Positions 32,062 through 62,437 of a stretch of 64,000 nt of DNA are shown one piece after another. Positions within the stretch are counted from its first letter, which is position 1, and every line of letters begins with the position of its first letter. The stretch covers positions 60,262,447-60,326,446 of the forward strand of contig OX638131.1 of NCBI GenBank assembly GCA_951804985.1, read 5' to 3'. A program made the position numbers and the translations under genes. Origin of the DNA: Dryomyza anilis (taxonomy: Eukaryota; Arthropoda; Insecta; Diptera; Dryomyzidae). Below the pieces are notes generated by a model. It searched no databases, was not told the DNA's origin, and saw nothing but the letters and a program-made list of their open reading frames with translations.

Positions 32062-32073
32062 CATATTTTTTGT

Positions 32074-33513: not shown

Positions 33514-33653
33514 ATTTTCAAGGTCGATTTTTGTTTTTATTTTTTTAGTATTTCTTGCTTGTTAAAAAAATAAAAACAGAAAAATTGCAAAATAACAACA
33601 GAAAATTGCAAATTCTGCATATAGCAATGCGTTTTATTTTACTTAATTATGCA

Positions 33654-33670
33654 AATATATATATATATAA

Positions 33671-33747
<77 letters not shown>

Positions 33748-33756
33748 TATATATAA

Positions 33757-33818
<62 letters not shown>

Positions 33819-33830
33819 TATATTATATTT
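33654..33830. repeat. (AT)n microsatellite
   Basis: About 175 bp of AT dinucleotides with AAATA interruptions, 150 bp outside the Polinton end. Expected to be length-variable. Confidence 0.95.
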
Positions 33831-38366: not shown

Positions 38367-38387
38367 GAAGCATTTAATAAAATAAGT

Positions 38388-41890: not shown

Positions 41891-43112
41891 AATCATAATG
41901 GTTTCTTCAAATGAAGGATAAAATTAAATACTATATCTCCAACTGTCTTAAATGTATAGCTTTTTCTCCAAAATCGGGAAAACATGAATACTCAGTAATA
42001 CTCCGAAAGGGAATGTGCCTTTTGAAACTGTGCATATAGATCATTCGGTCCAGTTTTGTTGAAGAATGCACATAAGAAGTATGTGTTTTTAGTAGTGGAT
42101 GCGTTTTCAAAATTTATAAAATTATATTCCGTCAGATAAACTGACACAAAAGAGGTTTTGAGTTGTTTGAAGTCATATTTCCATGCATATAGTCGTCCTA
42201 AAGCGATAGTATCGGATAGAGGAAGTGCATTTACTTCAAAAGATTTTAAGCAATTCCTTGAATGTAATAACGTCCGCCACATAAAAATCGCTACTGGATC
42301 TCCTCAAGCTAACGGCCAAGTTGAGAGGGTCAACAGAACTTTAGCCCCAATGATAGCAAAGTTGACCAGCGCAGGGAATTGTTCTACTTTAGATAAGGTA
42401 TTGCCAGACATCGAGTTTGCTATGAAAAACACGATTCATCGTAGTATAGGGGTAACTCCTAGTGAAATACTTTTTGGAATTAACCAAAGAGGATTAGTGA
42501 TAGATTACCTGAAGGAAAAGTTAGATGAAATGAATAAAAACCAGTTGGGAAGGTTAGATCACATGGGAAATTTTAAAGTAGGTGTAATTATGATAGTTAG
42601 GATTATCAAAATTATAGTCGGTCTAAGCCGACTATAAATACCCTACACATATGTGTGGTTACCATTCAAAGTGATATATAGGTCACCAGGGTATACGAAT
42701 CCTGAAAATAACTACAAACATTCAATCGCTGAAGAATTTCCATTCATTTGATACCCATATTTACAAATGGGTAGGTGTACCGAATTTCGTTTTTCTTTTT
42801 GTGAACCACAAGTCTTTTCGCCGGAAAACATTATTATCATGTATTTGAGCATGATATCAATATATGTTTGACCAAAAAGGTTTACCTAAGCACGTATACA
42901 TAAAAATTGATCTTTATATGTACATTTTATATGAGGTATTTGAACATAAGTGGTCGGATCATAGGTCACAATGGACCGATCTCGCCAATTCGCACATACA
43001 GCGTAGGTATATTAGTAATCTAAGTTATAAGTTTCATTTATCTAGCTCTTCAATTTTAAAAGTAGTAGGGATTTCAACAGGCAGACGGACAGACAGACAG
43101 ACGGACAGACAG

Positions 43113-43154
<42 letters not shown>

Positions 43155-43691
43155 GGACAGACGGACATCGCTAAATCGACTCAGGAGGTCATGCTGATCA
43201 AGAATATATATACTTTTCCATACCGGAGATGCTTCCTTCTGGGTGTTACAAACGGCGTACCAAACTGAATATACCCTTTCACTCTTAGTGTAGGGTATAA
43301 TGAAACTGAGAGGAATTTAGTACAGATAAGAGCTAAAGCGTCAGATAAAGTAATAAAGTGTCAAAATTATAATAAATTGTTAAAAGATCTAAATAGGACT
43401 CAGAAAATATATAAAGAGGGAGATTATGTAATGGTAAAGAATTTTATTAGTACAGCAGGAGCATGCAAGAAGATTGCTCCAAAGTTTAAAGGTCCATATA
43501 GAGTGGTAAAAACTTTGCCAAATGATAGATACCTTTTAAAAGATGTAGATGGGTTTAAACCCACTCAAATTCCGTATGAGGGTATATGGGAAGTTGCTAA
43601 TATTAAACCATGGATGGCTAATAAAGAATTTAAATCAGACGAAATCGGGACGATTACAAGTCAGGATGGCCGAACTGTAGAAACACTGTAG
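41821..43691 (+). pseudogene. A0 integrase, split by a mini-me element
   Basis: After the frame change, an HHCC zinc module (MYHDEMGHMGCDK, CLKC) is followed by the catalytic core: HIDHFGPV (first D, about 42040), VSDRGSAF (second D, about 42215) and GQVERVNRT (E, about 42320). In-frame TAA codons lie near 41897 and 42137. The mini-me at 42535-43301 cuts the core from the GPY/F-like C-terminus (KFKGPYRVV, near 43480), which ends at 43691 inside the LTR. It cannot be translated as one protein. Confidence 0.85.
42535..43301 (+). mobile_element. mini-me/DINE-1-like element, copy 1
   Basis: An insertion absent from A3, bounded by AACCAGTTGGGAAGG and TAGGGTATAAT. It contains a perfect stem (TATAGTCGG/CCGACTATA) at about 42617-42641, a (GACR)n microsatellite at 43082-43166 and the adjacent core ATCGCTAAATCGACTCAGG, then GATCAAGAATATATATACTT. 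Microsatellite plus core is the hallmark of dipteran mini-me/DINE-1 non-autonomous elements. Non-coding. Confidence 0.85.
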
Positions 43692-43867
43692 AAAGTACTG
43701 TAGAATTAAAAAAAAAAGAAAATCATGCTGTCGGTACAGAATAGTAGGCAGTCGTTAAGAAGATCATTGTAGCGTGTAGTCGCATATAATAAATTTTATA
43801 AAAATAAAATTTGCGTTTTATTTCAAATCAATTAAAATTTTATTAAAGCAAAAAATAACTGCTTACA
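43676..43867 (+). repeat. A0 3' LTR
   Basis: 192 bp, TGTAGAAACAC to CTGCTTACA, with TG/CA ends. The AATAAA-like ATAATAAATTTTATAAA lies centrally. Directly followed by element B sequence (GTAG). Confidence 0.9.
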
Positions 43868-44846
43868 GTAGCTGCCTTTAAATATGTGTTTTTAAGCAAT
43901 TCAAATAATGATTCTAAATCATCGATTTTCTTAGTCCTCACTAATTCATATGCATCTCCATCAAGACGCAGTTTAACGCATATCATGAATTCTTCTTGAT
44001 TTTCTTCACTTATATTAAGGTTCGCTGCCTTACAACCGTCTATAAATCTAAGAAGCTCCATTTTTAGGAACGGTGAATCTTCGCCCTTGAACACCGGGAC
44101 CAGATTTCGTACGCATTTCGAAATATCGTCTGTAGGCATTTCAATTATTGTTCTATCTGTTGTTATGTTTTCTAAATTTTCTTATATTCTTAAAGCTTCT
44201 TTATGGTATAACGTTTCTTGGGCTAATTTTACCTCCGCCTCTTAAAATCTGATCTTTGAGTCTAATTCTCTTACTTTGTTATTTGCCTCTTCGACTGATT
44301 CAAATTCTAATCTAGGTTGTTGATGCAGTACCCTAGCTACTTATTCATCAGAAATGTCTTTTTCTTTTAACAAAGCTCTTAATTTCTCGTTTTCCGACTC
44401 TAAAACGCAGGCGTGATCTAACAACTCCTGTTGTTCTGCTAATTTATCGTTTTTTTTTGTCGTTAACGCTGCAAACTCGCCTTTCCAGTTTTCTATCTCC
44501 TTTATTTTATTTTCACTCTTGTGTTCCAAGAAATATATTAGTTCTTCGAACACGACATCTACTCCTTCTACTTCGGAAGAGACCTTTGTACTATTTACTT
44601 TATTTTTTATTAATTGTAAATGTTCTTTGTTATTTACTTCGAGGCTGATTTGAGCCCACAATTTATCCGTAAACCTGTCCAATTGCCCTCTTTTACTAAA
44701 CCCACACATATTACATCTAATCTTCTTACTATATTCTACCACGAAATTCTCAAAACTTTTTGATATTCTTGATAATATGTTGTTTACTCTATACCCTACT
44801 TTTACTACTTCCTCTCCAAATGTTCCCTTATATTTTTCATATCCTG
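43868..44846 (-). pseudogene. Element B gag, N-terminal half (B0)
   Basis: Minus-strand element B. From about 44846 it reads AGYEKYKGTFGEEVV, then a Cys pair (RCNMCGFSKRGQLDRF), a long coiled coil (KSENKIKEIENWKGE, ESENEKLRALLKEKD) and, past stops near 44340 and 44240, the capsid N-terminal domain (VPVFKGEDSPFLKMELLRF, ESLFELLKNTYLKAAT). The reading stops at the A0 3' LTR, so the capsid is cut in mid-domain. The stops are shared with B1 and B2. Confidence 0.8.
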
Positions 44847-45222
44847 CTAGTTTTTTTTATTTTGTTCCCTAATGTAATCGACACAATACTTATAAAATGT
44901 ATGAAATGAATTATTATACCTGCTACTGTATTACAAACCAAATAAGGTGGCTCAACATATGTATCAACTGTCAGTCCCGACGTTTGATGAACAATATTTT
45001 CGTCGATTTTTTCTCCCTTCTCCTTCTCCTTACAGACCAAACACGGTGGCTCAACATATGTATCAACGGTCACTCCCGACGTTTGATGAACAATATTTTC
45101 GCTCACGGTTTTTTGGCTGTTATTCGCAACTTTGGTAGCAAATGTGATCACAGGCTCCCTTTGTGTATGAACCACTATTTCTACCTTTGACCTAACTTTA
45201 CTAATGTTAACGGGACCCCAGC
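44847..45222 (-). pseudogene. Element B post-gag stub with 99-bp duplication (B0)
   Basis: A frame after gag (VVHTQREPVITFATKV) carries a tandem repeat of ENIVHQTSGxTVDTYVEPP, with a 99-bp period (starts at 44946 and 45045). It may be the start of pol or a spacer. It then passes straight into the next gag N-terminal region, so the whole pol and LTR of element B are missing here. The head-to-tail junction of the array probably lies inside this stretch. Confidence 0.55.
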
Positions 45223-46318
45223 TTACTGGCCTTGACTGAGCCCCTGGTAGTTTCCCTTATTTTGATTGTTACTACCGTTTGGCCCAAAATTTTGCTTAGC
45301 GTGGCAATCCGCTATCATATGGCCAACTTGACCGCACTCATAACATGCTCTATTACTTCTGTAAGGCCTATTAGGCTTATCGTTATTACTGTGGTTATTT
45401 CTAAATGGATTATTATTTCCATTATTTTCATTACCATAATTAATATTATTATTATTAGTATTCTTATTATAATTATTACTGTTATTTCCATGATTGGGAA
45501 AACCTCCACTACCCCCTTGATATGGCTGATTTGGTTTCAGTTGACCTTTATATTCGTTGTTCGGAAAGCCTTGGTATTGTTGATTATGATTTTGCGGCTG
45601 TTGGTAACCCTTATTTAGAAGTCCTTTGTATTGCTGATTTTGTTGTTGCGGCTGTTGGTAACCGTTATTTAGAAGTCCTTTGTATTGCTGATTTTGTTGT
45701 TGCTCCTGGCACCCTTCCAATCTATTTAATCCGCATCGCCAACCAGATTCATGTCTGTACTCCTCGCATTCTCTGCAAAATGGTGTATTTTTGCGGATAT
45801 AACAGTCATCCCTTGTGTGTCCTGGTCTAATGCAAAAAGAACAGACTGGCCCTTTTATCATGGCAGCCCATGTATACCCATAATTTCTATTTTTTTGATT
45901 TTTACCCCTACCTTGTCTTAAAATTCTAATATCATTTTCTTGATTATTTTTACTAAACGAAGTTCCATTCGGTATTTTTCCAAACTATACAGTTCCTCCG
46001 GTTGTTTCGGTCCCCTCTGTATTGTAGCCTCTGCCCTTAACGCTTCATCTAATAATTCATTTAAATTATCCGCCCTGCTACTCAACAGTAGTATCTTTAC
46101 AGTCGGGTCACTCACTCCTACTTTAAATGCTGTGAGCACTGAATTTAATAGCTCTGTGTTAAAAACGTCCGTTGGCAGGTTCTTCTTTTTGTACATTGTA
46201 TCGGCTATGTCGTTTGCGTTTGACTGCAATACTTCTAACCGCCTTGCAAATGCCCTCAAACTTTCCCCTCCACCTTGATATGCTTGTCTTATGTTGTATT
46301 GTACGGAATCTAATGTGG
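45223..46318 (-). pseudogene. Element B gag, C-terminal half with zinc knuckles (B0)
   Basis: It begins at the A1 5' LTR junction with a QYNIRQAYQGGGESLRAFARR capsid C-terminal motif. Zinc-binding clusters follow: CSFCIRPGHTRDDC, CRECEEYRHESGWRC, and near the end CYECGQVGHMIADC. Between them is a Gln/Asn/Gly-rich low-complexity region with three QQYKGLL/QQYQGF-type repeats (45540-45715). One frameshift separates 46259-45918 from 45861-45223. Together with the N-terminal half across A1 (49496-50460) it forms one split gag. Confidence 0.85.
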
Positions 46319-46506
46319 TGTAGAAACACTGTAGAAAGTACTGTAGAATTTAAAAAAAAAGAAAATCATGGTGTCGGTACAGAATAGTAGTCAGTCGTTA
46401 AAAAGATCATTGTGTAGTCGCATATAATAAATTTTATAAAAATACAATTTGCGTTTTATTTCAAATCAATTAAAATTTTATTAAAAGCAAAAAATAACTG
46501 CTTACA
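46319..46506 (+). repeat. A1 5' LTR and primer-binding site
   Basis: 188 bp, TGTAGAAACAC to CTGCTTACA. The following ATCATCAGAAGTGGGATTG looks like a tRNA primer-binding site (CAGAAGTGGGAT); the tRNA is not assigned with confidence. Confidence 0.88.
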
Positions 46507-46532
46507 ATCATCAGAAGTGGGATTGTACAAAT

Positions 46533-47600
46533 ATGTCAACTAATATCCAATTGCTTGAGTCATACACTGTTCTGCAATTGAAAACGTGGTTGAACAATTT
46601 GGGACAAAAAACAACTGGCAACAAAAGCGAATTAGTGCTTCGACTAATGGAAATTCCAGAAAATATTCGTGGCGAGTTTGCCGAAAGCGGTGAGCATAGC
46701 AATGTGACGGAGTTGGTTGATGTAACAAGCGACGCGGAAGACGCCGAGGGAGCCGAAGGAAACGCCGACGAATCTGGAAGTAATGGCGATGACACTGTGA
46801 ATGACGGAGCTGGTGCAGCAAATGCAGACAAACAAGATGAATTCACACTTCCAGAAGAATCCAATAACGACGAAATTCCAATGAGTGTGTATACTAATGA
46901 AAATGAAACGGAGACGCAATCGAATGAAAAGAAGAAGAAAGCAAACCAAAGAACGAAAGAAGCTAATGAGAGGAAAATAATGAAACGAGAAATTGAACTA
47001 ATGAAGAAGAAATTGATATTCAAAGGAGAGAAAACGAAATTTTAAAGAGAGAAAATGAAATTCTTATGAATGATAGAATCAACAATGATGCAAATAAAAC
47101 TGATGACGGTTACGCAAAAGGAAATTTCAGAAACGTAAAGGATCTTATCTCGGAATTCACGGGAAATGGAGACTCTTTTCAACACTGGGAATCACAGCTA
47201 AAAAGTATTCGAGCGGCTTATAATCTTGATGATAACAATTTAAGGGCACTTATCTCAAACAAATTGAAAGGTAAAGCGTTGAAATGGTTTCACTCAAGAT
47301 CGGACATCATGACAGTGCCAATTGTAAAATTGTTATCGGACATGAAAACTTTGTTTGAAGATCGATCTAGCCGATTAACATTAAAACGAGAATTTGAAGC
47401 AAGAAAATGACTAACAAATGAAACATTTCTGGAGTAATTTCACGAAAAAATTATACTTGCAAATAAAATAACAATCGACGAAGACGAGCTGCTGGAATAT
47501 TTGATTGAGGGTATTCCAGATTCTACACTATGGTCACAATCAAACATGCAATGTTTCCGTGACAAACATCATTTATTAGAAGCATTTAATAAAATAAGTT
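46533..47600 (+). pseudogene. A1 gag with SAP-like N-terminus
   Basis: Starts at ATG 46533. Residues about 5-40 (LQLKTWLNNLGQKTTG, ELVLRLMEI) resemble a SAP helix-extended-helix motif, which binds AT-rich DNA in other proteins. An acidic linker (DAEDAEGAEG) and coiled coil follow. A one-base deletion near 47008 shifts the frame, and the capsid-like region resumes at 47066-47410. It ends at TGA followed by CTA at 47408, then remains open with a TAA near 47435. Inactive. Confidence 0.85.
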
Positions 47601-47687
47601 TGAACAAACCGACATTAATGAAATCAACATTGGTTTCTCATCAAAATGTAGCATCGGAAGTGAAGTCTACAACGAAGCAGAAAAAAA

Positions 47688-48653
47688 TTGGAATTGAGAT
47701 TAGATAAATGCCATTTTTTGGAGTCAGAAATAAGGTATTTAGGATATACGGTTTCGAATGAGGGTATACGACCTGATGAAAAAGGTATTGAGTCAGTTAT
47801 TAATTTTCCTATACCACAAAGCGTAAAAGCTGTTCATAGTTTTTTAGGTTTGTGTTCATATTTTAGAAAATTTATTAAAGGATTTTCATTGATAGCTCAG
47901 CCATTGTATAATTTAATTAGGAAAGACACAGTTTTCAAATTTGGTGAGGATGAGGTGCGTTGTTTTGAACGTATAAAACAAATGTTAGTCGAAGGACCTG
48001 TACTAGCGATATATGATCCTAGGGATGAGATAGAACTTCATTGCGACGCGAGTTCCCTTGGATTCGGAGCCATATTATTACAGAGAAAATCCGATGGAAA
48101 GCTGCATCCAGTTTTTTATTTTTCAAAACGAACAAGCGATCAGGAACCTAAATACCACAGCTTCGAATTAGACACTTTGTCAATCATTTATGCTCTACGT
48201 AGCTTTAGAATTTACTTACATGGTTTGAAGTTCAAAATAATAACTGATTGCAATTCATTAATATTAACATTAAACGAAATGGAAGTAAATCCTAGAATTG
48301 CCCTAGAATGGCCATTAGAATTGCAAAATTTTGATTACAGTTTAGAACATCGTAGTGGATCGAAGATGCAGCATGTTGATGCTCTTAGTAGGATTTCCAA
48401 TATCTTAGTTCTTAAAGAAAATACGTTTGAACAAAATTTATCAATTTGTCAGTACAAGGAAGAAAATATTAACAAAATACGAGTACAATTAGAAAGAGAA
48501 GAAAGTAAGACGTATGAAATGCGAAATGGTCTGATATACAGAAAGATTGGACAGAATATTCTGTTTTATGTACCAAGGAGGGGAATTTGTTGCGTATGTA
48601 CCATGATGAAATGGGGCACATGGGGAGCGATAAAGTTTCGAATGCAATACTAA
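47688..48653 (+). pseudogene. A1 RT thumb, RNase H and connection
   Basis: After the deletion joint (GAAGCAGAAAAAAATTGG, about 47681) the frame resumes in the RT thumb (CHFLESEIRYLGYTV). An intact RNase H domain follows (LHCDASSLGFGAILL, FELDTLSIIYALRSF, VDALSRI). It ends at 48653 after the frameshift common to all A copies. With no polymerase centre, only RNase H-like sequence survives. Confidence 0.88.
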
Positions 48654-49386
48654 AATCATAATGGTTTCTTCAAATGAAGGATAAAATTAAATACTATATC
48701 TCCAACTGTCTTAAATGTATAGCTTTTTCTCCAAAATCGGGAAAACATGAATACTCCGTAATACTCCGAAAGGGAATGTGCCTTTTGAAACTGTGCATAT
48801 AGATCATTCGGTCCAGTTTTGTTGAAGAATGCACATAAGAAGTATGTGTTTTTAGTAGTGGATGCGTTTTCAAAATTTATAAAATTATATTCCGTCAGAT
48901 AAACTGACACAAAAGAGGTTTTGAGTTGTTTGAAGTCATATTTCCATGCATATAGTCGTCCTAAAGCGATAGTATCGGATAGAGGAAGTGCATTTACTTC
49001 AAAAGATTTTAAGCAATTCCTTGAATGTAATAACGTCCGCCACATAAAAATCGCTACTGGATCTCCTCAAGCTAACGGCCAAGTTGAGAAGGTCAACAGA
49101 ACTTTAGCCCCAATGATAGCAAAGTTGACCAGCGCAGGGAATTGTTTTACTTTAGATAAGGTATTGCCAGACATCGAGTTTGCTATGAAAAACACGATTC
49201 ATCGTAGTATAGGGGTAACTCCTAGTGAAATACTTTTTGGAATTAACCAAAGAGGATTAGTGATAGATTACCTGAAGGAAAAGTTAGATGAAATGAATAA
49301 AAACCAGTTGGGAAGGTTAGATCACATGGGAAATTTTAAAGTAGGTGTAATTATGATAGTTAGGATTATCAAAATTATAGTCGGTC
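48586..49386 (+). pseudogene. A1 integrase core, truncated
   Basis: HHCC module and D,D,E core motifs as in A0 (HIDHFGPV, VSDRGSAF, GQVEKVNRT). TAA codons lie near 48660 and 48900. At about 49299 it runs into 88 bp of mini-me sequence that ends at the palindrome centre (TATAGTCGGTCT). From there it jumps to the LTR, losing the integrase C-terminus. Confidence 0.85.
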
Positions 49387-49391
49387 TCAGG

Positions 49392-49495
49392 CGAAGATCA
49401 GTAGTAGTCGCATATAATAAATTTTATAAAAATACAATTTGCGTTTTATTTCAAATCAATTAAAATTTTATTAAAGCAAAAAATAACTGCTTACA
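49392..49495 (+). repeat. A1 3' LTR, 5'-truncated
   Basis: Only the last about 100 bp of the LTR (GTAGTCGCATATAATAAA to CTGCTTACA). Confidence 0.85.
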
Positions 49496-50456
49496 GTAGC
49501 TGCCTTTAAATATGTGTTTTTAAGCAATTCAAATAATGATTCTAAATCATCGATTTTCTTAGTCCTCACTAATTCATATGCATCTCCATCAAGACGCAGT
49601 TTAATGCATATCATGAATTCTTCTTGATTTTCTTACTTATATTAAGGTTCGCTGCCTTACAACCGTCTATAAATCTAAGAAGCTCCATTTTTAGGAACGG
49701 TGAATCTTCGCCCTTGAACACCGGGACCAGATTTCGTACGCATTTCGAAATATCGTCTGTAGGCATTTCAATTATTGTTCTATCTGTTGTTATGTTTTCT
49801 AAATTTTCTTATATTCTTAAAGCTTCTTTATGGTATAACGTTTCTTGGGCTAATTTTACCTCCGCCTCTTAAAATCTGATCTTTGAGTCTAATTCTCTTA
49901 CTTTGTTATTTGCCTCTTCGACTGATTCAAATTCTAATCTAGGTTGTTGATGCAGTACCCTAGCTACTTATTCATCAGAAATGTCTTTTTCTTTTAACAA
50001 AGCTCTTAATTTCTCGTTTTCCGACTCTAAAACGCAGGCGTGATCTAACAACTCCTGTTGTTCTGCTAATTTATCGTTTTTTTTTGTCGTTAACGCTGCA
50101 AACTCGCCTTTCCAGTTTTCTATCTCCTTTATTTTATTTTCACTCTTGTGTTCCAAGAAATATATTAGTTCTTCGAACACGACATCTACTCCTTCTACTT
50201 CGGAAGAGACCTTTGTACTATTTACTTTATTTTTTATTAATTGTAAATGTTCTTTGTTATTTACTTCGAGGCTGATTTGAGCCCACAATTTATCCGTAAA
50301 CCTGTCCAATTGCCCTCTTTTACTAAACCCACACATATTACATCTAATCTTCTTACTATATTCTACCACGAAATTCTCAAAACTTTTTGATATTCTTGAT
50401 AATATGTTGTTTACTCTATACCCTACTTTTACTACTTCCTCTCCAAATGTTCCCTT
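49496..50456 (-). pseudogene. Element B gag, N-terminal half (B1)
   Basis: Same organisation as B0 43868-44846 (Cys pair, coiled coil at 50369-49968, capsid start), but a short deletion near 49635 adds a frameshift in the capsid part compared with B0. This half pairs with the C-terminal half at 45223-46318 across A1. Confidence 0.8.
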
Positions 50457-50849
50457 ATATTTTTCATATCCTGCTAGTTTTTTTTATTTTGTTCCCTAAT
50501 GTAATCGACACAATACTTATAAAATGTATGAAATGAATTATTATACCTGCTACTGTATTACAAACCAAATAAGGTGGCTCAACATATGTATCAACTGTCA
50601 GTCCCGACGTTTGATGAACAATATTTTCGTCGATTTTTTCTCCCTTCTCCTTCTCCTTACAGACCAAACACGGTGGCTCAACATATGTATCAACGGTCAC
50701 TCCCGACGTTTGATGAACAATATTTTCGCTCACGGTTTTTTGGCTGTTATTCGCAACTTTGGTAGCAAATGTGATCACAGGCTCCCTTTGTGTATGAACC
50801 ACTATTTCTACCTTTGACCTAACTTTACTAATGTTAACGGGACCCCAGC
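50457..50849 (-). pseudogene. Element B post-gag stub (B1)
   Basis: Same as 44847-45222, including the 99-bp tandem duplication; I see no structural difference. Confidence 0.55.
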
Positions 50850-51945
50850 TTACTGGCCTTGACTGAGCCCCTGGTAGTTTCCCTTATTTTGATTGTTACT
50901 ACCGTTTGGCCCAAAATTTTGCTTAGCGTGGCAATCCGCTATCATATGGCCAACTTGACCGCACTCATAACATGCTCTATTACTTCTGTAAGGCCTATTA
51001 GGCTTATCGTTATTACTGTGGTTATTTCTAAATGGATTATTATTTCCATTATTTTCATTACCATAATTAATATTATTATTATTAGTATTCTTATTATAAT
51101 TATTACTGTTATTTCCATGATTGGGAAAACCTCCACTACCCCCTTGATATGGCTGATTTGGTTTCAGTTGACCTTTATATTCGTTGTTCGGAAAGCCTTG
51201 GTATTGTTGATTATGATTTTGCGGCTGTTGGTAACCCTTATTTAGAAGTCCTTTGTATTGCTGATTTTGTTGTTGCGGCTGTTGGTAACCGTTATTTAGA
51301 AGTCCTTTGTATTGCTGATTTTGTTGTTGCTCCTGGCACCCTTCCAATCTATTTAATCCGCATCGCCAACCAGATTCATGTCTGTACTCCTCGCATTCTC
51401 TGCAAAATGGTGTATTTTTGCGGATATAACAGTCATCCCTTGTGTGTCCTGGTCTAATGCAAAAAGAACAGACTGGCCCTTTTATCATGGCAGCCCCTGT
51501 ATACCCATAATTTCTATTTTTTTGATTTTTACCCCTACCTTGTCTTAAAATTCTAATATCATTTTCTTGATTATTTTTACTAAACGAAGTTCCATTCGGT
51601 ATTTTTCCAAACTATACAGTTCCTCCGGTTGTTTCGGTCCCCTCTGTATTATAGCCTCTGCCCTTAACGCTTCATCTAATAATTCATTTAAATTATCCGC
51701 CCTGCTACTCAACAGTAGTATCTTTACAGTCGGGTCACTCACTCCTACTTTAAATGCTGTGAGCACTGAATTTAATAGCTCTGTGTTAAAAACGTCCGTT
51801 GGCAGGTTCTTCTTTTTGTACATTGTATCGGCTATGTCGTTTGCGTTTGACTGCAATACTTCTAACCGCCTTGCAAATGCCCTCAAACTTTCCCCTCCAC
51901 CTTGATATGCTTGTCTTATGTTGTATTGTACGGAATCTAATGTGG
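50850..51945 (-). pseudogene. Element B gag, C-terminal half with zinc knuckles (B1)
   Basis: Near-identical to B0 45223-46318: capsid C-terminal motif (51886-51545), frameshift, then knuckles and the three-repeat Gln-rich region (51488-50850). Only scattered base differences are seen (for example AAGCAATTAT-type changes near 51650). Confidence 0.85.
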
Positions 51946-52133
51946 TGTAGAAACACTGTAGAAAGTACTGTAGAATTTAAAAAAAAAGAAAATCATGGTG
52001 TCGGTACAGAATAGTAGTCAGTCGTTAAAAAGATCATTGTGTAGTCGCATATAATAAATTTTATAAAAATACAATTTGCGTTTTATTTCAAATCAATTAA
52101 AATTTTATTAAAAGCAAAAAATAACTGCTTACA
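51946..52133 (+). repeat. A2 5' LTR
   Basis: 188 bp, matching the A1 LTR, followed by the same CAGAAGTGGGAT primer-site motif. Confidence 0.88.
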
Positions 52134-52159
52134 ATCATCAGAAGTGGGATTGTACAAAT

Positions 52160-53200
52160 ATGTCAACTAATATCCAATTGCTTGAGTCATACACTGTTCT
52201 GCAATTGAAAACGTGGTTGAACAATTTGGGACAAAAAACAACTGGCAACAAAAGCGAATTGGAAAATTCCAGAAAATATTCGTGGCGAGTTTGCCGAAAG
52301 CGGTGAGCATAGCAATGTGACGGAGTTGGTTGATGTAACAAGCGACGCGGAAGACGCCGAGGGAGCCGAAGGAAACGCCGACGAATCTGGAAGTAATGGC
52401 GATGACACTGTGAATGACGGAGCTGGTGCAGCAAATGCAGACAAACAAGATGAATTCACACTTCCAGAAGAATCCAATAACGACGAAATTCCAATGAGTG
52501 TGTATACTAATGAAAATGAAACGGAGACGCAATCGAATGAAAAGAAGAAGAAAGCAAACCAAAGAACGAAAGAAGCTAATGAGAGGAAAATAATGAAACG
52601 AGAAATTGAACTAATGAAAAGAGAAATTGATATTCAAAGGAGAGAAAACGAAATTTTAAAGAGAGAAAATGAAATTTCCTATGAATGATAGAATCAACAA
52701 TGATGCAAATAAAACTGATGACGGTTACGCAAAAGGAAATTTCAGAAACGTAAAGGATCTTATCTCGGAATTCACGGGAAATGGAGACTCTTTTCAACAC
52801 TGGGAATCACAGCTAAAAAGTATTCGAGCGGCTTATAATCTTGATGATAACAATTTAAGGGCACTTATCTCAAACAAATTGAAAGGTAAAGCGTTGAAAT
52901 GGTTTCACTCAAGATCGGACATCATGACAGTGCCAATTGTAAAATTGTTATCGGACATGAAAACTTTGTTTGAAGATCGATCTAGCCGATTAACATTAAA
53001 ACGAGAATTTGAAGCAAGAAAATGACTAACAAATGAAACATTTCTGGAGTAATTTCACGAAAAAATTATACTTGCAAATAAAATAACAATCGACGAAGAC
53101 GAGCTGCTGGAATATTTGATTGAGGGTATTCCAGATTCTACACTATGGTCACAATCAAACATGCAATGTTTCCGTGACAAACATCATTTATTAGAAGCAT
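52160..53200 (+). pseudogene. A2 gag
   Basis: ATG at 52160, but a deletion of about 12 bp near 52260 removes the end of the SAP-like motif and changes the frame. The acidic and coiled-coil part reads in 52317-52688. A one-base insertion then shifts to 52669-53025, which holds the capsid-like region and ends at the shared TGA-CTA. Inactive. Confidence 0.82.
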
Positions 53201-53302
53201 TTAATAAAATAAGTTTGAACAAACCGACATTAATGAAATCAACATTGGTTTCTCATCAAAATGTAGCATCGGAAGTGAAGTCTACAACGAAGCAGAAAAA
53301 AA

Positions 53303-54268
53303 TTGGAATTGAGATTAGATAAATGCCATTTTTTGGAGTCAGAAATAAGGTATTTAGGATATACGGTTTCGAATGAGGGTATACGACCTGATGAAAAAGG
53401 TATTGAGTCAGTTATTAATTTTCCTATACCACAAAGCGTAAAAGCTGTTCATAGTTTTTTAGGTTTGTGTTCATATTTTAGAAAATTTATTAAAGGATTT
53501 TCATTGATAGCTCAGCCATTGTATAATTTAATTAGGAAAGACACAGTTTTCAAATTTGGTGAGGATGAGGTGCGTTGTTTTGAACGTATAAAACAAATGT
53601 TAGTCGAAGGACCTGTACTAGCGATATATGATCCTAGGGATGAGATAGAACTTCATTGCGACGCGAGTTCCCTTGGATTCGGAGCCATATTATTACAGAG
53701 AAAATCCGATGGAAAGCTGCATCCAGTTTTTTATTTTTCAAAACGAACAAGCGATCAGGAACCTAAATACCACAGCTTCGAATTAGACACTTTGTCAATC
53801 ATTTATGCTCTACGTAGCTTTAGAATTTACTTACATGGTTTGAAGTTCAAAATAATAACTGATTGGAATTCATTAATATTAACATTAAACGAAATGGAAG
53901 TAAATCCTAGAATTGCCCTAGAATGGCCATTAGAATTGCAAAATTTTGATTACAGTTTAGAACATCGTAGTGGATCGAAGATGCAGCATGTTGATGCTCT
54001 TAGTAGGATTTCCAATATCTTAGTTCTTAAAGAAAATACGTTTGAACAAAATTTATCAATTTGTCAGTACAAGGAAGAAAATATTAACAAAATACGAGTA
54101 CAATTAGAAAGAGAAGAAAGTAAGACGTATGAAATGCGAAATGGTCTGATATACAGAAAGATTGGACAGAATATTCTGTTTTATGTACCAAGGAGGGGAA
54201 TTTGTTGCGTATGTACCATGATGAAATGGGGCACATGGGGTGCGATAAAGTTTCGAATGCAATACTAA
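53303..54268 (+). pseudogene. A2 RT thumb, RNase H and connection
   Basis: As A1. In the RNase H third motif region it reads TDWNSLILTL where the other copies have TDCNSLILTL. Confidence 0.87.
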
Positions 54269-55002
54269 AATCATAATGGTTTCTTCAAATGAAGGATAAA
54301 ATTAAATACTATATCTCCAACTGTCTTAAATGTATAGCTTTTTCTCCAAAATCGGGAAAACATGAATACTCCGTAATACTCCGAAAGGGAATGTGCCTTT
54401 TGAAACTGTGCATATAGATCATTCGGTCCAGTTTTGTTGAAGAATGCACATAAGAAGTATGTGTTTTTAGTAGTGGATGCGTTTTCAAAATTTATAAAAT
54501 TATATTCCGTCAGATAAACTGACACAAAAGAGGTTTTGAGTTGTTTGAAGTCATATTTCCATGCATATAGTCGTCCTAAAGCGATAGTATCGGATAGAGG
54601 AAGTGCATTTACTTCAAAAGATTTTAAGCAATTCCTTGAATGTAATAACGTCCGCCACATAAAAATCGCTACTGGATCTCCTCAAGCTAACGGCCAAGTT
54701 GAGAGGGTCAACAGAACTTTAGCCCCAATGATAGCAAAGTTGACCAGCGCAGGGAATTGTTTTACTTTAGATAAGGTATTGCCAGACATCGAGTTTGCTA
54801 TGAAAAACACGATTCATCGTAGTATAGGGGTAACTCCTAGTGAAATACTTTTTGGAATTAACCAAAGAGGATTAGTGATAGATTACCTGAAGGAAAAGTT
54901 AGATGAAATGAATAAAAACCAGTTGGGAAGGTTAGATCACATGGGAAATTTTAAAGTAGGTGTAATTATGATAGTTAGGATTATCAAAATTATAGTCGGT
55001 CT
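54201..55002 (+). pseudogene. A2 integrase core, truncated at the mini-me palindrome
   Basis: Core motifs as in A1, with GQVERVNRT at the third acidic position. The mini-me remnant (54914-55002) ends at the same base of the palindrome as in A1, so the deletion predates the A1/A2 duplication. Confidence 0.85.
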
Positions 55003-55007
55003 CAGGC

Positions 55008-55110
55008 GAAGATCAGTAGTAGTCGCATATAATAAATTTTATAAAAATACAATTTGCGTTTTATTTCAAATCAATTAAAATTTTATTAAAGCAAAAAATA
55101 ACTGCTTACA
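55008..55110 (+). repeat. A2 3' LTR, 5'-truncated
   Basis: Same truncated LTR as 49392-49495. Confidence 0.85.
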
Positions 55111-56064
55111 GTAGCTGCCTTTAAATATGTGTTTTTAAGCAATTCAAATAATGATTCTAAATCATCGATTTTCTTAGTCCTCACTAATTCATATGCATCT
55201 CCATCAAGACGCAGTTTAATGCATATTATGAATTCTTCTTGATTTTCTTACTTATATTAAGGTTCGCTGCCTTACAACCGTCTATAAATCTAAGAAGCTC
55301 CATTTTTAGGAACGGTGAATCTTCGCCCTTGAACACCGGGACCAGATTTCGTACGCATTTCGAAATATCGTCTGTAGGCATTTCAATTATTGTTCTATCT
55401 GTTGTTATGTTTTCTAAATTTTCTTATATTCTTAAAGCTTCTTTATGGTATAACGTTTCTTGGGCTAATTTTACCTCCGCCTCTTAAAATCTGATCTTTG
55501 AGTCTAATTCTCTTACTTTGTTATTTGCCTCTTCGACTGATTCAAATTCTAATCTAGGTTGTTGATGCAGTACCCTAGCTACTTATTCATCAGAAATGTC
55601 TTTTTCTTTTAACAAAGCTCTTAATTTCTCGTTTTCCGACTCTAAACCGCAGGCGTGATCTAACAACTCCTGTTGTTCTGCTAATTTATCGTTTTTTTTT
55701 GTCGTTAACGCTGCAAACTCGCCTTTCCAGTTTTCTATCTCCTTTATTTTATTTTCACTCTTGTGTTCCAAGAAATATATTAGTTCTTCGAACACGACAT
55801 CTACTCCTTCTACTTCGGAAGAGACCTTTGTACTATTTACTTTATTTTTTATTAATTGTAAATGTTCTTTGTTATTTACTTCGAGGCTGATTTGAGCCCA
55901 CAATTTATCCGTAAACCTGTCCAATTGCCCTCTTTTACTAAACCCACACATATTACATCTAATCTTCTTACTATATTCTACCACGAAATTCTCAAAACTT
56001 TTTGATATTCTTGATAATATGTTGTTTACTCTACTTTTACTACTTCCTCTCCAAATGTTCCCTT
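55111..56064 (-). pseudogene. Element B gag, N-terminal half (B2)
   Basis: As B1, with the same capsid frameshift near 55250 and a further few-base deletion near 56033 (ACTCTACTTTTAC). Coiled coil at 55984-55583. Confidence 0.8.
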
Positions 56065-56457
56065 ATATTTTTCATATCCTGCTAGTTTTTTTTATTTTGT
56101 TCCCTAATGTAATCGACACAATACTTATAAAATGTATGAAATGAATTATTATACCTGCTACTGTATTACAAACCAAATAAGGTGGCTCAACATATGTATC
56201 AACTGTCAGTCCCGACGTTTGATGAACAATATTTTCGTCGATTTTTTCTCCCTTCTCCTTCTCCTTACAGACCAAACACGGTGGCTCAACATATGTATCA
56301 ACGGTCACTCCCGACGTTTGATGAACAATATTTTCGCTCACGGTTTTTTGGCTGTTATTCGCAACTTTGGTAGCAAATGTGATCACAGGCTCCCTTTGTG
56401 TATGAACCACTATTTCTACCTTTGACCTAACTTTACTAATGTTAACGGGACCCCAGC
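56065..56457 (-). pseudogene. Element B post-gag stub (B2)
   Basis: Third copy of the stub with the 99-bp duplication retained. Confidence 0.55.
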
Positions 56458-57499
56458 TTACTGGCCTTGACTGAGCCCCTGGTAGTTTCCCTTATTTTGA
56501 TTGTTACTACCGTTTGGCCCAAAATTTTGCTTAGCGTGGCAATCCGCTATCATATGGCCAACTTGACCGCACTCATAACATGCTCAATTACTTCTGTAAG
56601 GCCTATTAGGCTTATCGTTATTACTGTGGTTATTTCTAAATGGATTATTATTTCCATTATTTTCATTACCATAATTAATATTATTATTATTAGTATTCTT
56701 ATTATAATTATTACTGTTATTTCCATGATTGGGAAAACCTCCACTACCCCCTTGATATGGCTGATTTGGTTTCAGTTGACCTTTATATTCGTTGTTCGGA
56801 AAGCCTTGGTATTGTTGATTATGATTTTGCGGCTGTTGGTAACCCTTATTTAGAAGTCCTTTGTATTGCTGATTTTGTTGTTGCTCCTGGCACCCTTCCA
56901 ATCTATTTAATCCGCATCGCCAACCAGATTCATGTCTGTACTCCTCGCATTCTCTGCAAAATGGTGTATTTTTGCGGATATAACAGTCATCCCTTGTGTG
57001 TCCTGGTCTAATGCAAAAAGAACAGACTGGCCCTTTTATCATGGCAGCCCCTGTATACCCATAATTTCTATTTTTTTGATTTTTACCCCTACCTTGTCTT
57101 AAAATTCTAATATCATTTTCTTGATTATTTTTACTAAACGAAGTTCCATTCGGTATTTTTCCAAACTATACTGTTCCTCCGGTTGTTTCGGTTCCCTCTG
57201 TATTGTAGCCTCTGCCCTTAACGCTTCATCTAATAATTCATTTAAATTATCCGCCCTGCTACTCAACAGTAGTATCTTTACAGTCGGGTCACTCACTCCT
57301 ACTTTAAATGCTGTGAGCACTGAATTTAATAGCTCTGTGTTAAAAACGTCCGTTGGCAGGTTCTTCTTTTTGTACATTGTATCGGCTATGTCGTTTGCGT
57401 TTGACTGCAATATTTCTAACCGCCTTGCAAATGCCCTCAAACTTTCCCCTCCACCTTGATATGCTTGTCTTATGTTGTATTGTACGGAATCTAATGTGG
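56458..57499 (-). pseudogene. Element B gag, C-terminal half (B2), one repeat shorter
   Basis: As B0/B1, but the Gln-rich stretch has one QQQNQQYKGLLNNGYQQP-type unit fewer. A base change near 56585 closes the knuckle frame early (56584). The capsid C-terminal motif is at 57440-57099. Confidence 0.83.
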
Positions 57500-57687
57500 T
57501 GTAGAAACACTGTAGAAAGTACTGTAGAATTTAAAAAAAAAGAAAATCATGGTGTCGGAACAGAATAGTAGTCAGTCGTTAAAAAGATCATTGTGTAGTC
57601 GCATATAATAAATTTTATAAAAATACAATTTGCGTTTTATTTCAAATCAATTAAAATTTTATTAAAAGCAAAAAATAACTGCTTACA
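57500..57687 (+). repeat. A3 5' LTR
   Basis: 188 bp, TGTAGAAACAC to CTGCTTACA, then the CAGAAGTGGGAT primer-site motif. Confidence 0.88.
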
Positions 57688-57713
57688 ATCATCAGAAGTG
57701 GGATTGTACAAAT

Positions 57714-58755
57714 ATGTCAACTAATATCCAATTGCTTAAGTCATACACTGTTCTGCAATTGAAAACGTGGTTGAACAATTTGGGACAAAAAACAACTGGC
57801 AACAAAAGCGAATTAGTGCTTCGACTAATGGAAATTCCAGAAAATATTCGTGGCGAGTTTGCCGAAAGCGGTGAGCATAGCAATGTGACGGAGTTGGTTG
57901 ATGTAACAAGCGAAGCGGAAGACGCCGAGGGAGCCGAAGGAAACGCCGACGAATCTGGAAGTAATGGCGATGACACTGTGAATGACGGAGCTGGTGCAGC
58001 AAATGCAGACAAACAAGATGAATTCACACTTCCAGAAGAATCCAATAACGACGAAATTCCAATGAGTGTGTATACTAATGAAAATGAAACGGAGACGCAA
58101 TCGAATGAAAAGAAGAAGAAAGCAAACCAAAGAACGAAAGAAGCTAATGAGAGGAAAATAATGAAACGAGAAATTGAACTAATGAAAAGAGAAATTGATA
58201 TTCAAAGGAGAGAAAACGAAATTTTAAAGAGAGAAAATGAAATTCTTATGGATGATAGAATCAACAATGATGCAAATAAAACTGATGACGGTTACGCAAA
58301 AGGAAATTTCAGAAACGTAAAGGATCTTATCTCGGAATTCACGGGAAATGGAGACTCTTTTCAACACTGGGAATCACAGCTAAAAAGTATTCGAGCGGCT
58401 TATAATCTTGATGATAACAATTTAAGGGCACTTATCTCAAACAAATTGAAAGGTAAAGCGTTGAAATGGTTTCACTCAAGATCGGACATCATGACAGTGC
58501 CAATTGTAAAATTGTTATCGGACATGAAAACTTTGTTTGAAGATCGATCTAGCCGATTAACATTAAAACGAGAATTTGAAGCAAGAAAATGACTAACAAA
58601 TGAAACATTTCTGGAGTATTTTCACGAAAAAATTATACTTGCAAATAAAATAACAATCGACGAAGACGAGCTGCTGGAATATTTGATTGAGGGTATTCCA
58701 GATTCTACACTGCGGTCACAATCAAAAATGCAATGTTTCCGTGACATTTATTAGA
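57714..58755 (+). pseudogene. A3 gag with SAP-like N-terminus
   Basis: The best-preserved gag: 292 residues from ATG 57714 through the SAP-like motif (residues about 5-40), acidic linker, coiled coil (about 130-180) and capsid-like region (VKDLISEFTGNGDSFQHW, KGKALKWFHSR). The stop is the TGA (58590-58592) that all copies share, followed by CTA. The same frame continues (LTNETFLEYFHEK) until the 7-bp deletion near 58745. Confidence 0.88.
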
Positions 58756-58869
58756 AGCATTTAATAAAATAAGTTTGAACAAACCGACATTAATGAAATC
58801 AACATTGGTTTCTCATCAAAATGTAGCATCGGAAGTGAAGTCTACAACGAAGCAGAAAAAAATTGGAAT

Positions 58870-59825
58870 TGAGATTAGATAAATGCCATTTTTTGGAGTC
58901 AGAAATAAGGTATTTAGTATATACTGTTTCGAATGAGGGTATATGACCTGATGAAAAAGGTATTGAGTCAGTTATTAATTTTCCTATACCACAAAGCGTA
59001 AAAGCTGTTCATAGTTTTTTAGGTTTTTGTTCATATTTTAGAAAATTTATTAAAGGATTTTCATTGATAGCTCAGCCATTGTATAATTTAATTAGGAAAG
59101 ACACAGTTTTCAAATTTGGTGAGGATGAGGTGCGTTGTTTTGAACGTATAAAACAAATGTTAGTCGAAGGACCTGTACTAGCGATATATGATCCTAGGGA
59201 TGAGATAGAACTTCATTGCGACGTGAGCTCCCTTGGATTCGGAGCCATATTATTACAGAGAAAATCCGATGGAAAGCTGCATCCAGTTTTTTATTTTTCA
59301 AAACGAACAAGCGATCAGGAACCTAAATACCACAGCTTCGAATTAGAGACTTTGTCAATCATTTATGCTCTACGTAGGTTTAGAATTTACTTACATGGTT
59401 TGAAGTTCAAAATAATAACTGATTGCAATTCATTAATATTAACATTAAACAAAAAGGAAGTAAATCCTAGAATTGCCAGATGGCCATTAGAATTGCAAAA
59501 TTTTGATTACAGTTTAGAACATCGTAGTGGATCGAAGATGCAGCATGTTGATGCTCTTAGTGGGATTTCCAATATCTTAGTTCTTGAAGAAAATACGTTT
59601 GAACAAAATTTATCAATTTGTCAGTACAAGGAAGAAAATATTAACAAAATACGAGTACAATTAGAAAGAGAAGAAAGTAAGACGTATGAAATGCGAAATG
59701 GTCTGATATACAGAAAGATTGGACAGAATATTCTGTTTTATGTACCAAGGAGGGGAATTTGTTGCGTATGTACCATGATGAAATGGGGCACATGGGGTGC
59801 GATAAAGTTTCGAATGCAATACTAA
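58870..59825 (+). pseudogene. A3 RT thumb, RNase H and connection
   Basis: Same joint as A1/A2. Point changes create a stop near 58946, so the longest frame starts at 59064. The RNase H first motif reads LHCDVSSLGFG. A 3-base loss near 59477 removes one residue. It ends at the shared frameshift. Confidence 0.86.
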
Positions 59826-60866
59826 AATCATAATGGTTTCTTCAAATGAAGGATAAAATTAAATACTATATCTCCAACTGTCTTAAATGTATAGCTTTTT
59901 CTCCAAAATCGGGAAAACATGAATACTCCGTAATACTCCGAAAGGGAATGTGCCTTTTGAAACTGTGCATATAGATCATTCGGTCCAGTTTTGTTGAAGA
60001 ATGCACATAAGAAGTATGTGTTTTTAGTAGTGGATGCGTTTTCAAAATTTATAAAATTATATTCCGTCAGATCAACTGACACAAAAGAGGTTTTGAGTTG
60101 TTTGAAGTCATATTTCCATGCATATAGTCGTCCTAAAGCGATAGTATCGGATAGAGGAAGTGCATTTACTTCAAAAGATTTTAAGCAATTCCTTGAATGT
60201 AATAACGTCCGCCACATAAAAATCGCTCTTGGATCTCCTCAAGCTAACGGCCAAGTTGAGAGGGTCAACAGAACTTTAGCCCCAATGATAGCAAAGTTGA
60301 CCAGCGCAGGGAATTGTTCTACTTTAGATAAGGTATTGCCAGACATCGAGTTTGCTATGAAAAACACGATTCATCGTAGTATAGGGGTAACTCCTAGTGA
60401 AATACTTTTTGGAATTAACCAAAGAGGATTAGTGATAGATTACCTGAAGGAAAAGTTAGATGAAATGAATAGAAATGAAACTGAGAGGAATTTAGTACAG
60501 ATAAGAGCTAAAGCGTCAGATAAAATAATAAAGTGTCAAAATTATAATAAATTGTTAAAAGATCAAAATAGGACTCAGAAAATATATAAAGAGGGAGATT
60601 ATGTAATGGTAAAGAATTTTATTAGTACAGCAGGAACTTGCAAGAAGATTGCTCCAAAGTTTAAAGGTCCATATAGAGTGGTAAAAACTTTGCCAAATGA
60701 TATATACCTTTTAAAAGATGTAGAGGGATTTCAACCCACTCAAATTCCGTATGAGGGTATATGGGAAGTTGCTAATATTAAACCATGGATGGCTAATAAA
60801 GAATTTAAATCAGACGAAATCGGGACCATTACAAGTCAGGATGGCCGAACTGTAGAAACACTGTAG
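59760..60866 (+). pseudogene. A3 integrase, core and C-terminus continuous
   Basis: From 59991 a 291-codon frame holds the catalytic core (VSDRGSAF near 60145, GQVERVNRT near 60250) and the GPY/F-like KFKGPYRVV end (about 60660), stopping inside the LTR. The upstream TAA found in A0-A2 near the first core region is absent here. The shared frameshift and a TAA near 59830 still separate it from RNase H. Confidence 0.88.
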
Positions 60867-60995
60867 AAAGTACAGTAGAATTAAAGAAGATCATTGTAGC
60901 GTGTAGTCGCATATAATAAATTTTATAAAAATACAATTTGCGTTTTATTTCAAATCAATTAAAATTTTATTAAAAGCAAAAAATAACTGCTTACA
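60851..60995 (+). repeat. A3 3' LTR, internally deleted
   Basis: 145 bp. It lacks about 45 bp after TGTAGAAAGTACAGTAGAAT compared with the 5' LTR, so it is not identical to its partner. Confidence 0.85.
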
Positions 60996-61722
60996 GTAGC
61001 TGCCTTTAAATATGTGTTTTTAAGCAATTCAAATAATGATTCTAAATTATCGATTTTCTTAGTCCTCACTAATTCATATGCATCTCCATCAAGACGCAGT
61101 TTAACGCATATCATGAATTCTTCTTGATTTTCTTCACTTATATTAAGGTTCGCTGCCTTACAACCGTCTATAAATCTAAGAAGCTCCGTTTTTAGGAACG
61201 GTGAATCTTCGCCCTTGAACACCGGGACCAGATTTCGTACGCATTTCGAAATATCGTCTGTAGGCATTTCAATTATTATTTTATCTGTTGTTATGTTTTC
61301 TAAATTTTCTTCTATTCTTAAAGCTTCTTTATGGTATAACGAAGTTTCTTGTGCTAATTTTACCTCCGCCTCTTAAAATCTGATCTTTGAGTCTAATTCT
61401 CTTACTTTGATATTTGCCTCTTCGACTGATTCAAATTCTAATCTAGGTTATTGATGCAGTACTCTAGAAATGTCTTTTTCTTTTAACAAAGCTCTTAATT
61501 TCTCGTTTTCCGACTCTAAACCGCAGGCGTGATCTAACAACTCATGTTTTTCTGCTAATTTATCGTTTATTTTTTTCGTTAACGCTGCAAACTCGCCTTT
61601 CCAGTTTTCTATCTCCTTTATTTTATTTTCACTCTTGTGTTCCAAGAAATATATTAGTTCTTCGAACACGACATCTACTCCTTCTACTTCGGAAAAACAT
61701 TTGTACTATTTACTTTATTTTT
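60996..61722 (-). pseudogene. Element B gag, N-terminal half (B3, truncated)
   Basis: Capsid start (61267-60996) and part of the coiled coil (61669-61448). More diverged than B0-B2, with one upstream stop codon missing and small indels. Cut at 61722 by the second mini-me element. Confidence 0.8.
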
Positions 61723-62437
61723 TATACCCTACACTAAGAGTGAAAGGGTATATTCAGTTTGGTACGCCGTTTGTAACACCCAGAAGGAAGCATCTCCGGT
61801 ATGGAAAAGTATATATATTTTTGATCAGCATGACCTCCTGGGTCGATTTAGCGATGTCCGCCTGTCTGTCTGTCTGCCCGTCTGTCTGTCCGTCTGTCTG
61901 TCTGTTGAAATCCCTACTACTTTTAAAATTGAAGAGCTAGATAAATGAAACTTATAACTTAGATTACTAATATACCTACGCTGTATGTGCGAAGATCGGT
62001 CCATTGTGACCTATGATCCGACCACTTATGTTTAAATACCTCATATAAAATGTACATATAAAGATCAATATTTATGTATACGTGCTTAGGTAAACTTTTT
62101 TGGTCAAATATATATTGATATCATGCTCAAATACATGATAATAATGTTTTCCGGCGAAAAGACTTGTGGTTCACAAAAAAAAATCGAAATTCGGTACACT
62201 TACCCATTTGTAAATATGGGTATCAAATGAATGGAAATTCTTCAGCGATTTAATATTTGTAGTTATTTTCAGGATTCGTATACCCTGGTGACCTATATAT
62301 CACTTTGAATGGTAACCACACATATGTGTAGGGTATTTATAGTCGGCTTAGACCGACTATAATTTTGATAATCCAAACTATCATAATTACACCTACTTTA
62401 AAATTTCCCATGTGATCTAACCTTCCCAACTGGTTTT
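61723..62437 (-). mobile_element. mini-me/DINE-1-like element, copy 2 (inverted)
   Basis: Reverse orientation to 42535-43301: ATACCCTACACTAAGAG at its left end, GATCAGCATGACC and CGATTTAGCGATGT core, (GTCY)n at about 61860-61906, the TATAGTCGG/CCGACTATA palindrome at 62338-62362, ending CTTCCCAACTGGTTTT. Confidence 0.88.

What the first reader, a model, noticed from the sequence alone, without database searches (positions are those of the whole stretch)
43868..61722. Tandem array built from one retrotransposon inserted antisense in another
Element A interrupts the same codon of element B gag in every unit, and the composite has been multiplied as about 5.6-kb tandem units. The array produces opposing gag transcripts and inverted pairing potential, so it could be a source of double-stranded or piRNA precursors.
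Basis: partly seen in the sequence, partly recalled or inferred. Interest (0 to 1): 0.75.

Follow-up and report, generated by a model that had tools for sequence, protein, structure and literature searches.

The report
Tandem array inside a dead provirus
A decayed retrovirus-like element, already split by a second retrotransposon, had its gag region multiplied into a short head-to-tail array; this looks like ordinary DNA-repair-type duplication in a transposon graveyard rather than a working piece of machinery.

Summary
A Ty3/gypsy retrotransposon ("Inner", plus strand, own LTRs) sits antisense in the gag gene of another ("Outer", minus strand), at the same codon in every copy. The pair is repeated head to tail at 5.6-5.9 kb spacing: three near-complete units plus a truncated one, so the array runs 37709-61721, not 43868-61722. 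Comparison with the genome explains it. Twelve uninterrupted Outer sites at 8 other loci show the empty target and a 4-bp target duplication (GTAG). All three head-to-tail junctions are the same 4-bp microhomology (CCCT) inside Outer, found only here among the scored genome matches. Remains of an Outer provirus (LTR, env, end of pol) lie left of the array in element order, split by a Polinton and a LINE, so the array most likely grew in place inside one provirus. Copies differ by 0.1-2.4% and by a mosaic of indels, arguing against a simple assembly duplication. Two other Outer proviruses carry internal arrays with other breakpoints. No inverted repeat lies within a unit, and no RNA data were available, so the piRNA/dsRNA role is unsupported. 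Duplicated transposon nests are known in Drosophila.

The parts
12337..12767 (-). LTR segment of an Outer provirus (its 3' side)
   Evidence: 94-97% to the right-end segment of L003, L004, L008, L010 and L005; the same segment also lies left of env in L018, so it is terminal at both ends there
13867..15067 (-). env remnant (Baculovirus F-type) of the Outer provirus
   Evidence: PF12259 in ORFs 13867-14643 and 14606-15067; 12337-16385 colinear in pieces with L018, 14632-16417 with L006
16417..33507 (.). Polinton/Maverick inserted in the Outer provirus, flanked by 6-bp TATATA
   Evidence: L006 runs on across the site; inverted terminal repeats (1232 bp at 97.8%); rve, A32-like ATPase, PolB
33508..35220 (-). 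Outer provirus, segment from env side to end of pol
   Evidence: matches L001, L003, L004, L006, L008, L010 in pieces, all six stopping at 35220; L006 lacks 33669-34314, which other loci match in part
35221..37708 (-). non-LTR retrotransposon piece standing where Outer pol and the left part of unit 0 would be
   Evidence: RVT_1 in 35087-36430; another copy in L016 covers 35217-37640 in pieces, 82-96%
37709..43867 (+). Inner copy 0: 5'-truncated, pol not deleted, exact tandem duplication 39009-41376 (period 1183), 3' LTR 43676-43867
42540..43299 (+). ~0.76-kb non-coding repeat inserted in Inner copy 0
   Evidence: uninterrupted in copy 3 at 60475; 92% inverted copy at 61722-62437
43868..44689 (-). 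Outer gag N-terminal half, copy 0
44686..44689 (.). head-to-tail junction 1, CCCT microhomology
44686..46318 (-). Outer pol start and gag C-terminal half (zinc knuckles), unit 1
46319..49495 (+). Inner copy 1: 5' LTR 46319-46506, pol deletion at 47681, repeat fragment to 49394 joined to truncated 3' LTR from 49404
49496..50316 (-). Outer gag N-terminal half, copy 1, ending in junction 2 (50313-50316)
50313..51945 (-). Outer pol start and gag C-terminal half, unit 2
51946..55110 (+). Inner copy 2, same deletions as copy 1
55111..55931 (-). Outer gag N-terminal half, copy 2, ending in junction 3 (55928-55931)
55928..57499 (-). Outer pol start and gag C-terminal half, unit 3 (54 bp shorter)
57500..60995 (+). 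Inner copy 3: both LTRs (57500-57687, 60851-60995), pol deletion, no ~0.76-kb repeat
60996..61721 (-). Outer gag N-terminal half, copy 3, the most diverged; array ends here
   Evidence: 2.2-2.4% substitutions to the other three
61722..62437 (-). reversed copy of the ~0.76-kb repeat at the right edge of the array

Best explanation
An errantivirus-like Ty3/gypsy provirus (Outer, minus strand: LTR, gag, pol, Baculo_F-type env) took an antisense insertion of another Ty3/gypsy element (Inner) into gag, with a 4-bp target duplication. Later, a break or replication slip joined two sites in Outer sharing the four bases CCCT, one in gag and one near the pol start. This duplicated the gag segment with its Inner passenger in place, head to tail. 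Unequal exchange or conversion between the copies then extended and shuffled the array, while small repeats, a LINE, a Polinton and deletions eroded the locus. Shown: nesting, empty site, target duplication, one shared junction with microhomology, remains of an Outer provirus to the left in element order, differences between copies. Inferred: that those remains and the array are one provirus (the link is broken at 35221-37708), repair- or replication-type joining, later exchange, absence of function.
For: Repeats and copy anatomy. Empty Inner site at 12 of 12 sites found by motif in 8 other loci, all with GTAG; the window reads GTGG|Inner|GTAG. In nine fetched records (8 loci) Outer continues on both sides of the junction; the window fuses the two sides at one CCCT (one record reads CCCA on one side). 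Only the three window copies span the junction among 40 scored of 1042 first-look candidates. Window 12337-16417 and 33508-35220 are colinear in pieces with other Outer copies across the Polinton. Age order: Inner's LTR pair in copy 3 differs at 5/145 sites and the copy 0 3' LTR from the copy 1 5' LTR at 7/187, against 11/5458 between units 1 and 2 (p 4e-5 and 9e-7). Mosaic: the pol deletion is in copies 1-3, the ~0.76-kb repeat in copies 0-2; with an assumed ancestral copy lacking both, all four combinations occur, which needs exchange. Two other Outer proviruses carry internal arrays with other breakpoints, flanked by their own left and right parts.
Against: The right remainder of Outer (5' LTR side) is missing next to the array, and Outer pol between 35220 and the array is gone, so the outer edges of the original duplication are not visible and the array could in principle belong to another Outer copy than the remains on its left. 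A 4-bp match at a junction can occur by chance. Only four copies; of the two-versus-two sites seven fit one grouping and only one conflicts. The left target copy differs by one base from the right; duplications of 1 or 7 bases would also keep the frame, though the empty sites favour 4.
Confidence: 0.83

Rival explanations
1. The repeated units came from an extrachromosomal circle closed at CCCT, copied by rolling circle and re-inserted.
For: A circle junction and a tandem-duplication junction look alike; the Outer right remainder is absent beside the array and the left remains are separated from it by a LINE and a deletion.
Against: Remains of an Outer provirus lie to the left on the same strand in element order; two other Outer loci have arrays flanked by the element's own left and right parts, which is in-place duplication; units form a mosaic rather than one clean amplification.
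Confidence: 0.1
2. Assembly artefact: fewer units exist than the contig shows.
For: Units 1 and 2 are only 0.2% apart (11/5458); the 1185-bp repeat in copy 0 is 100% identical; no reads were available.
Against: Units differ by substitutions and structure; copies 0 and 3 are each structurally unique; the junction itself needs at least one real duplication. Loss of one of units 1 and 2 would still leave an array.
Confidence: 0.05
3. The array is maintained as a source of dsRNA or piRNA precursors.
For: Two retrotransposon genes on opposite strands in a transposon-dense locus; such loci can feed piRNA pathways in flies (general knowledge, not from a call).
Against: No inverted repeat within a unit; no transcript or small-RNA data; copies decay independently; nothing here distinguishes it from neutral decay.
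Confidence: 0.05

Closest known systems
Tandem arrays of nested transposons in Drosophila melanogaster high-density regions (PMC1794594; passages and figure legends seen)
   Same: A transposon nested in another and the nest duplicated as tandem arrays (invader1->DM88 nest in the Hsp70B region; both LTR elements by recall), copies differing by later insertions; tandem duplication called sufficient for some cases
   Different: Here the duplication appears to lie inside one provirus and the junction shows 4-bp microhomology; another, unnamed species
Tandem repeats derived from maize centromeric retrotransposons CRM1TR/CRM4TR (PMC3648361; passages seen)
   Same: Tandem repeats born from Ty3/gypsy elements, nested insertions suggested as a starting point, conversion or unequal exchange as amplifiers
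   Different: Those units come from around the LTR-UTR junction and are more numerous (39 full-length CRM4TR monomers mentioned); here gag and pol start plus an antisense passenger, about 3.5 units
Satellite birth from transposons (review PMC9659126; passages seen)
   Same: Lists unequal crossing-over, repair-driven duplication and rolling circle as routes
   Different: This array is short and its junction was seen at one locus only; it has not become a satellite

Membership tests
Ty3/gypsy LTR retrotransposon (Inner) | LTR pair ending TG...CA | tested here: met
   188-192-bp LTRs starting TGTAG and ending TTACA
Ty3/gypsy LTR retrotransposon (Inner) | gag with zinc knuckles, then RT, RNase H, integrase in that order | tested here: met
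   SAP (23.5 bits, just under the cut-off of 23.9), zf-CCHC, RVT_1, RT_RNaseH, rve, found in different broken copies
Ty3/gypsy LTR retrotransposon (Inner) | short target-site duplication | tested here: met
   GTAG target seen empty at 12 sites in 8 loci; left copy in the window now GTGG
Errantivirus-like Ty3/gypsy provirus (Outer) | gag, protease, RT, RNase H, integrase order | tested here: met
   zinc knuckle, RVP, RVT_1, RNaseH, H2C2, rve in L005; RVP and the zinc knuckle there are below Pfam's cut-offs, the zinc knuckle in the window is above
Errantivirus-like Ty3/gypsy provirus (Outer) | env gene downstream of pol | tested here: met
   Baculo_F pieces at 13.9-15.1 kb; stretch colinear with L018 and L006
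Errantivirus-like Ty3/gypsy provirus (Outer) | placement by an RT tree | not tested
   no tree was built
Duplicated nested-transposon cluster | same nest, same insertion point, repeated head to tail | tested here: met
piRNA cluster / dsRNA source | uniquely mapping small RNAs or transcripts on both strands | not testable with these tools
   no RNA data
piRNA cluster / dsRNA source | inverted repeats in the unit able to pair | tested here: not met
   none within a unit in 43000-62500
Satellite DNA | many copies, long arrays | tested here: not met
   about 3.5 units; junction seen only at this locus among 40 scored candidates

The most novel reading that the evidence does not exclude
The Outer family has a recurrent habit of multiplying its own internal gag/pol segment in place: in this genome at least three Outer loci carry head-to-tail arrays with different breakpoints (5.6 kb here, 4.3 kb x 4 on C6, 4.4 kb x 2 elsewhere on C2), making the family a seed of new tandem repeats rather than the victim of one accident.
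Probability: 0.25. Interest if true: 0.45.

Novelty: new member of a known kind. Interest (0 to 1): 0.3.

Why it matters
It is a clean, datable example of how a nested transposon becomes a tandem array: the empty target, the duplication junction and the order of events can be read from one assembly. Together with the two sister arrays it gives material to test whether some retroviral-like families seed tandem repeats more often than others.

Tried and rejected
My first placement of the unit junction at about 44866, from ORF order alone (note), was wrong; the genome comparison put it at 44686-44689. My note counts 13 empty Inner sites in 9 loci; the output shows 12, and L001/L002 are one locus, so 8 loci. 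My note counts 38 places including the array; it is 38 besides the three window copies. Protein searches: Inner gag gave 7 relatives (best named: Teleopsis dalmanni); Inner pol gave 2757 at E <= 0.001, 120 listed; the Outer zinc-knuckle ORF gave none. Two Outer gag pieces had no PDB relative, and neither Inner pol nor an Outer gag piece had a confirmed relative in viral contigs. A single-sequence fold of the Outer gag C-terminal piece was helical but poor (mean pLDDT 48.8) and was not used. Considered and rejected: independent insertions of the composite (identical flanks, one junction); transposition of the composite as a unit (no target duplication at the junction); hairpin RNA. Not tested: whether the Inner-in-Outer junction or Inner itself occurs elsewhere in the genome, because those searches did not complete; only the fetched loci L001-L015 were checked for Inner, without a match. 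Confidence in the best explanation was lowered from 0.86 to 0.83, and the circle rival raised from 0.08 to 0.10, when rechecking showed that the link between the array and the remains on its left is inferred.
Full report
NAMES. 'Inner' is the plus-strand LTR retrotransposon; 'Outer' is the minus-strand element whose gag it interrupts.

THE ARRAY IS REAL. Self-comparison finds 7.5 kb at 99.5% identity offset by about 5.6 kb, with continuation to 60475. Outer gag resumes after Inner at 43868, 49496, 55111 and 60996. There are four Inner copies, four Outer gag N-terminal halves, three gag C-terminal halves and three head-to-tail junctions. It ends at 61721, where a reversed ~0.76-kb repeat starts.

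WHAT THE TWO ELEMENTS ARE. Inner has 188-192-bp LTRs (TG...CA), a SAP-domain gag, zinc knuckles, RT, RNase H and integrase, seen in different broken copies. Its gag is 45% identical to an unnamed protein and 44% to a Teleopsis dalmanni protein, so the host may be a fly; it is unnamed here. Outer alone gives only zinc-finger hits in the array, but in another genomic copy (L005) the continuation carries protease (below Pfam's cut-off), RT, RNase H and integrase in Ty3/gypsy order, and an env stretch lies beyond in L018 and L006.

NESTING. All four right flanks and all three left flanks of Inner are identical for the 41 bases printed. At 12 of 12 sites found by motif in 8 other loci Outer is uninterrupted and reads GTAG at the target (11 sites read TAATGTAGCTACC, one TAAGGTAGCTACC; diverged sites would be missed by the motifs). 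The window has GTGG before and GTAG after Inner, so the 4-bp target was duplicated, and one copy changed before amplification. With a 4-bp duplication the gag frame runs K-A-A-T-L-D-S; lengths 1 and 7 also keep that frame.

THE JUNCTION. A 601-base query across the suspected boundary matched in full only at the three window copies; the other long matches start at 44686 or 44687 (40 scored of 1042 first-look candidates). In nine fetched records (8 loci) Outer runs on past this point on both sides; the window fuses the two sides at a single CCCT (one record reads CCCA on one side). This is a tandem-duplication junction with 4-bp microhomology, not LTR-LTR recombination.

THE ARRAY MOST LIKELY LIES INSIDE ONE PROVIRUS. 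Window 12337-16385 matches L018 in order and in pieces (LTR segment, env), and L006 runs from window 14632-16417 straight to 33507-35220, skipping the Polinton, whose ends are flanked by TATATA; L006 lacks 33669-34314, which other loci match in part. At 35220 six of six matching loci part from the window, where a LINE piece starts; another copy of that LINE in L016 covers 35217-37640 in pieces. Then the array begins. So LTR, env, end of pol and the gag array lie on one strand in element order. The link across 35221-37708 is inferred: Outer pol and the left part of unit 0 are missing there. The 5' LTR side of Outer is not found next to the array; to the right lies a different, related env-bearing element (73-80% identity).

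ORDER OF EVENTS. Inner's LTRs differ by 5/145 within copy 3, and by 7/187 between the copy 0 3' LTR and the copy 1 5' LTR; units 1 and 2 differ by 11/5458 over the pieces compared. Inner is therefore older than the last duplication. Copy 3 is 0.35% from copy 1 at its left (5/1435) but 2.35% at its right end (17/722; p 3e-5), as expected for the edge of an array or a recombinant. The pol deletion (copies 1-3) and the ~0.76-kb repeat (copies 0-2) overlap in a way that needs exchange between copies, if the ancestor lacked both. The two-versus-two sites give weaker support: seven are 0110 (copies 1 and 2 together) and only one is 0011.

ASSEMBLY. Substitutions, indels and structural differences between units speak against a simple false duplication. 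No read data were available. The one suspicious stretch is the exact 1185-bp repeat in Inner copy 0.

SISTER ARRAYS. On C6 an Outer provirus carries four copies of a 4.3-kb internal segment (99.1-99.7% where compared; copy 2 compared over 2.6 kb), flanked by its own left part and its own right end; against L005 the junction shares at most one base. On C2 near 67.73 Mb another carries two copies at 4.4 kb, with a breakpoint about 0.6 kb into a foreign insert. These loci were picked because hits lay close together. A fourth pair, 14.4 kb apart on C2 (57.97-57.99 Mb), was not inspected.

FUNCTION. No inverted repeat lies within a unit. Outer gag in the array is interrupted by Inner and by stops and frameshifts; Inner copies 1-3 lack part of pol. 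No data on transcripts or small RNAs exist here. The neutral reading is enough.

NOVELTY. Tandem arrays of nested transposons are described in D. melanogaster (PMC1794594, passages and legends seen). Searches aimed at arrays inside errantivirus-like elements or piRNA clusters (no paper; 8 of 44 listed; 3 of 3 listed) were seen as listings only and showed no such precedent in titles or abstract starts, which is thin evidence. I rate it a new member of a known kind.

Noticed in passing
16417-33507: A Polinton/Maverick about 17 kb long with >1.2-kb inverted terminal repeats (97.8%) and TATATA flanks, inserted in the Outer provirus; integrase, A32-like ATPase and PolB pieces recognisable.
   Followed up: partly
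25569-29204: A 1211-aa open frame of a non-LTR retrotransposon (endonuclease, RT, RNase H) sits inside the Polinton next to PolB.
   Followed up: partly
23068-23381: A tRNA-Arg-like stretch at the end of the Polinton ATPase frame; related copies at 10822-11060 (93%) and in L003 (97%) suggest a tRNA-derived SINE.
   Followed up: partly
39009-41376: Exact (100%) 1185-bp tandem duplication in the pol of Inner copy 0; either very recent or an assembly error.
   Followed up: partly
18888-19268: 192-bp unit duplicated at 99% within a Polinton open frame.
   Followed up: no
42540-43299 and 61722-62437: ~0.76-kb repeat with (ACAG)n and a terminal TATACCCT...AGGGTATA hairpin; size and features recall the mini-me/Helitron2_Cv type described for Calliphora vicina (PMC3630058, passages seen); membership not tested.
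   Followed up: partly
62856-64000, L009, L014: A related env-bearing element (73-80% to Outer) directly right of the array.
   Followed up: partly
L001, L002, L011; L007, L015: Two other Outer proviruses with internal head-to-tail arrays and different breakpoints.
   Followed up: partly
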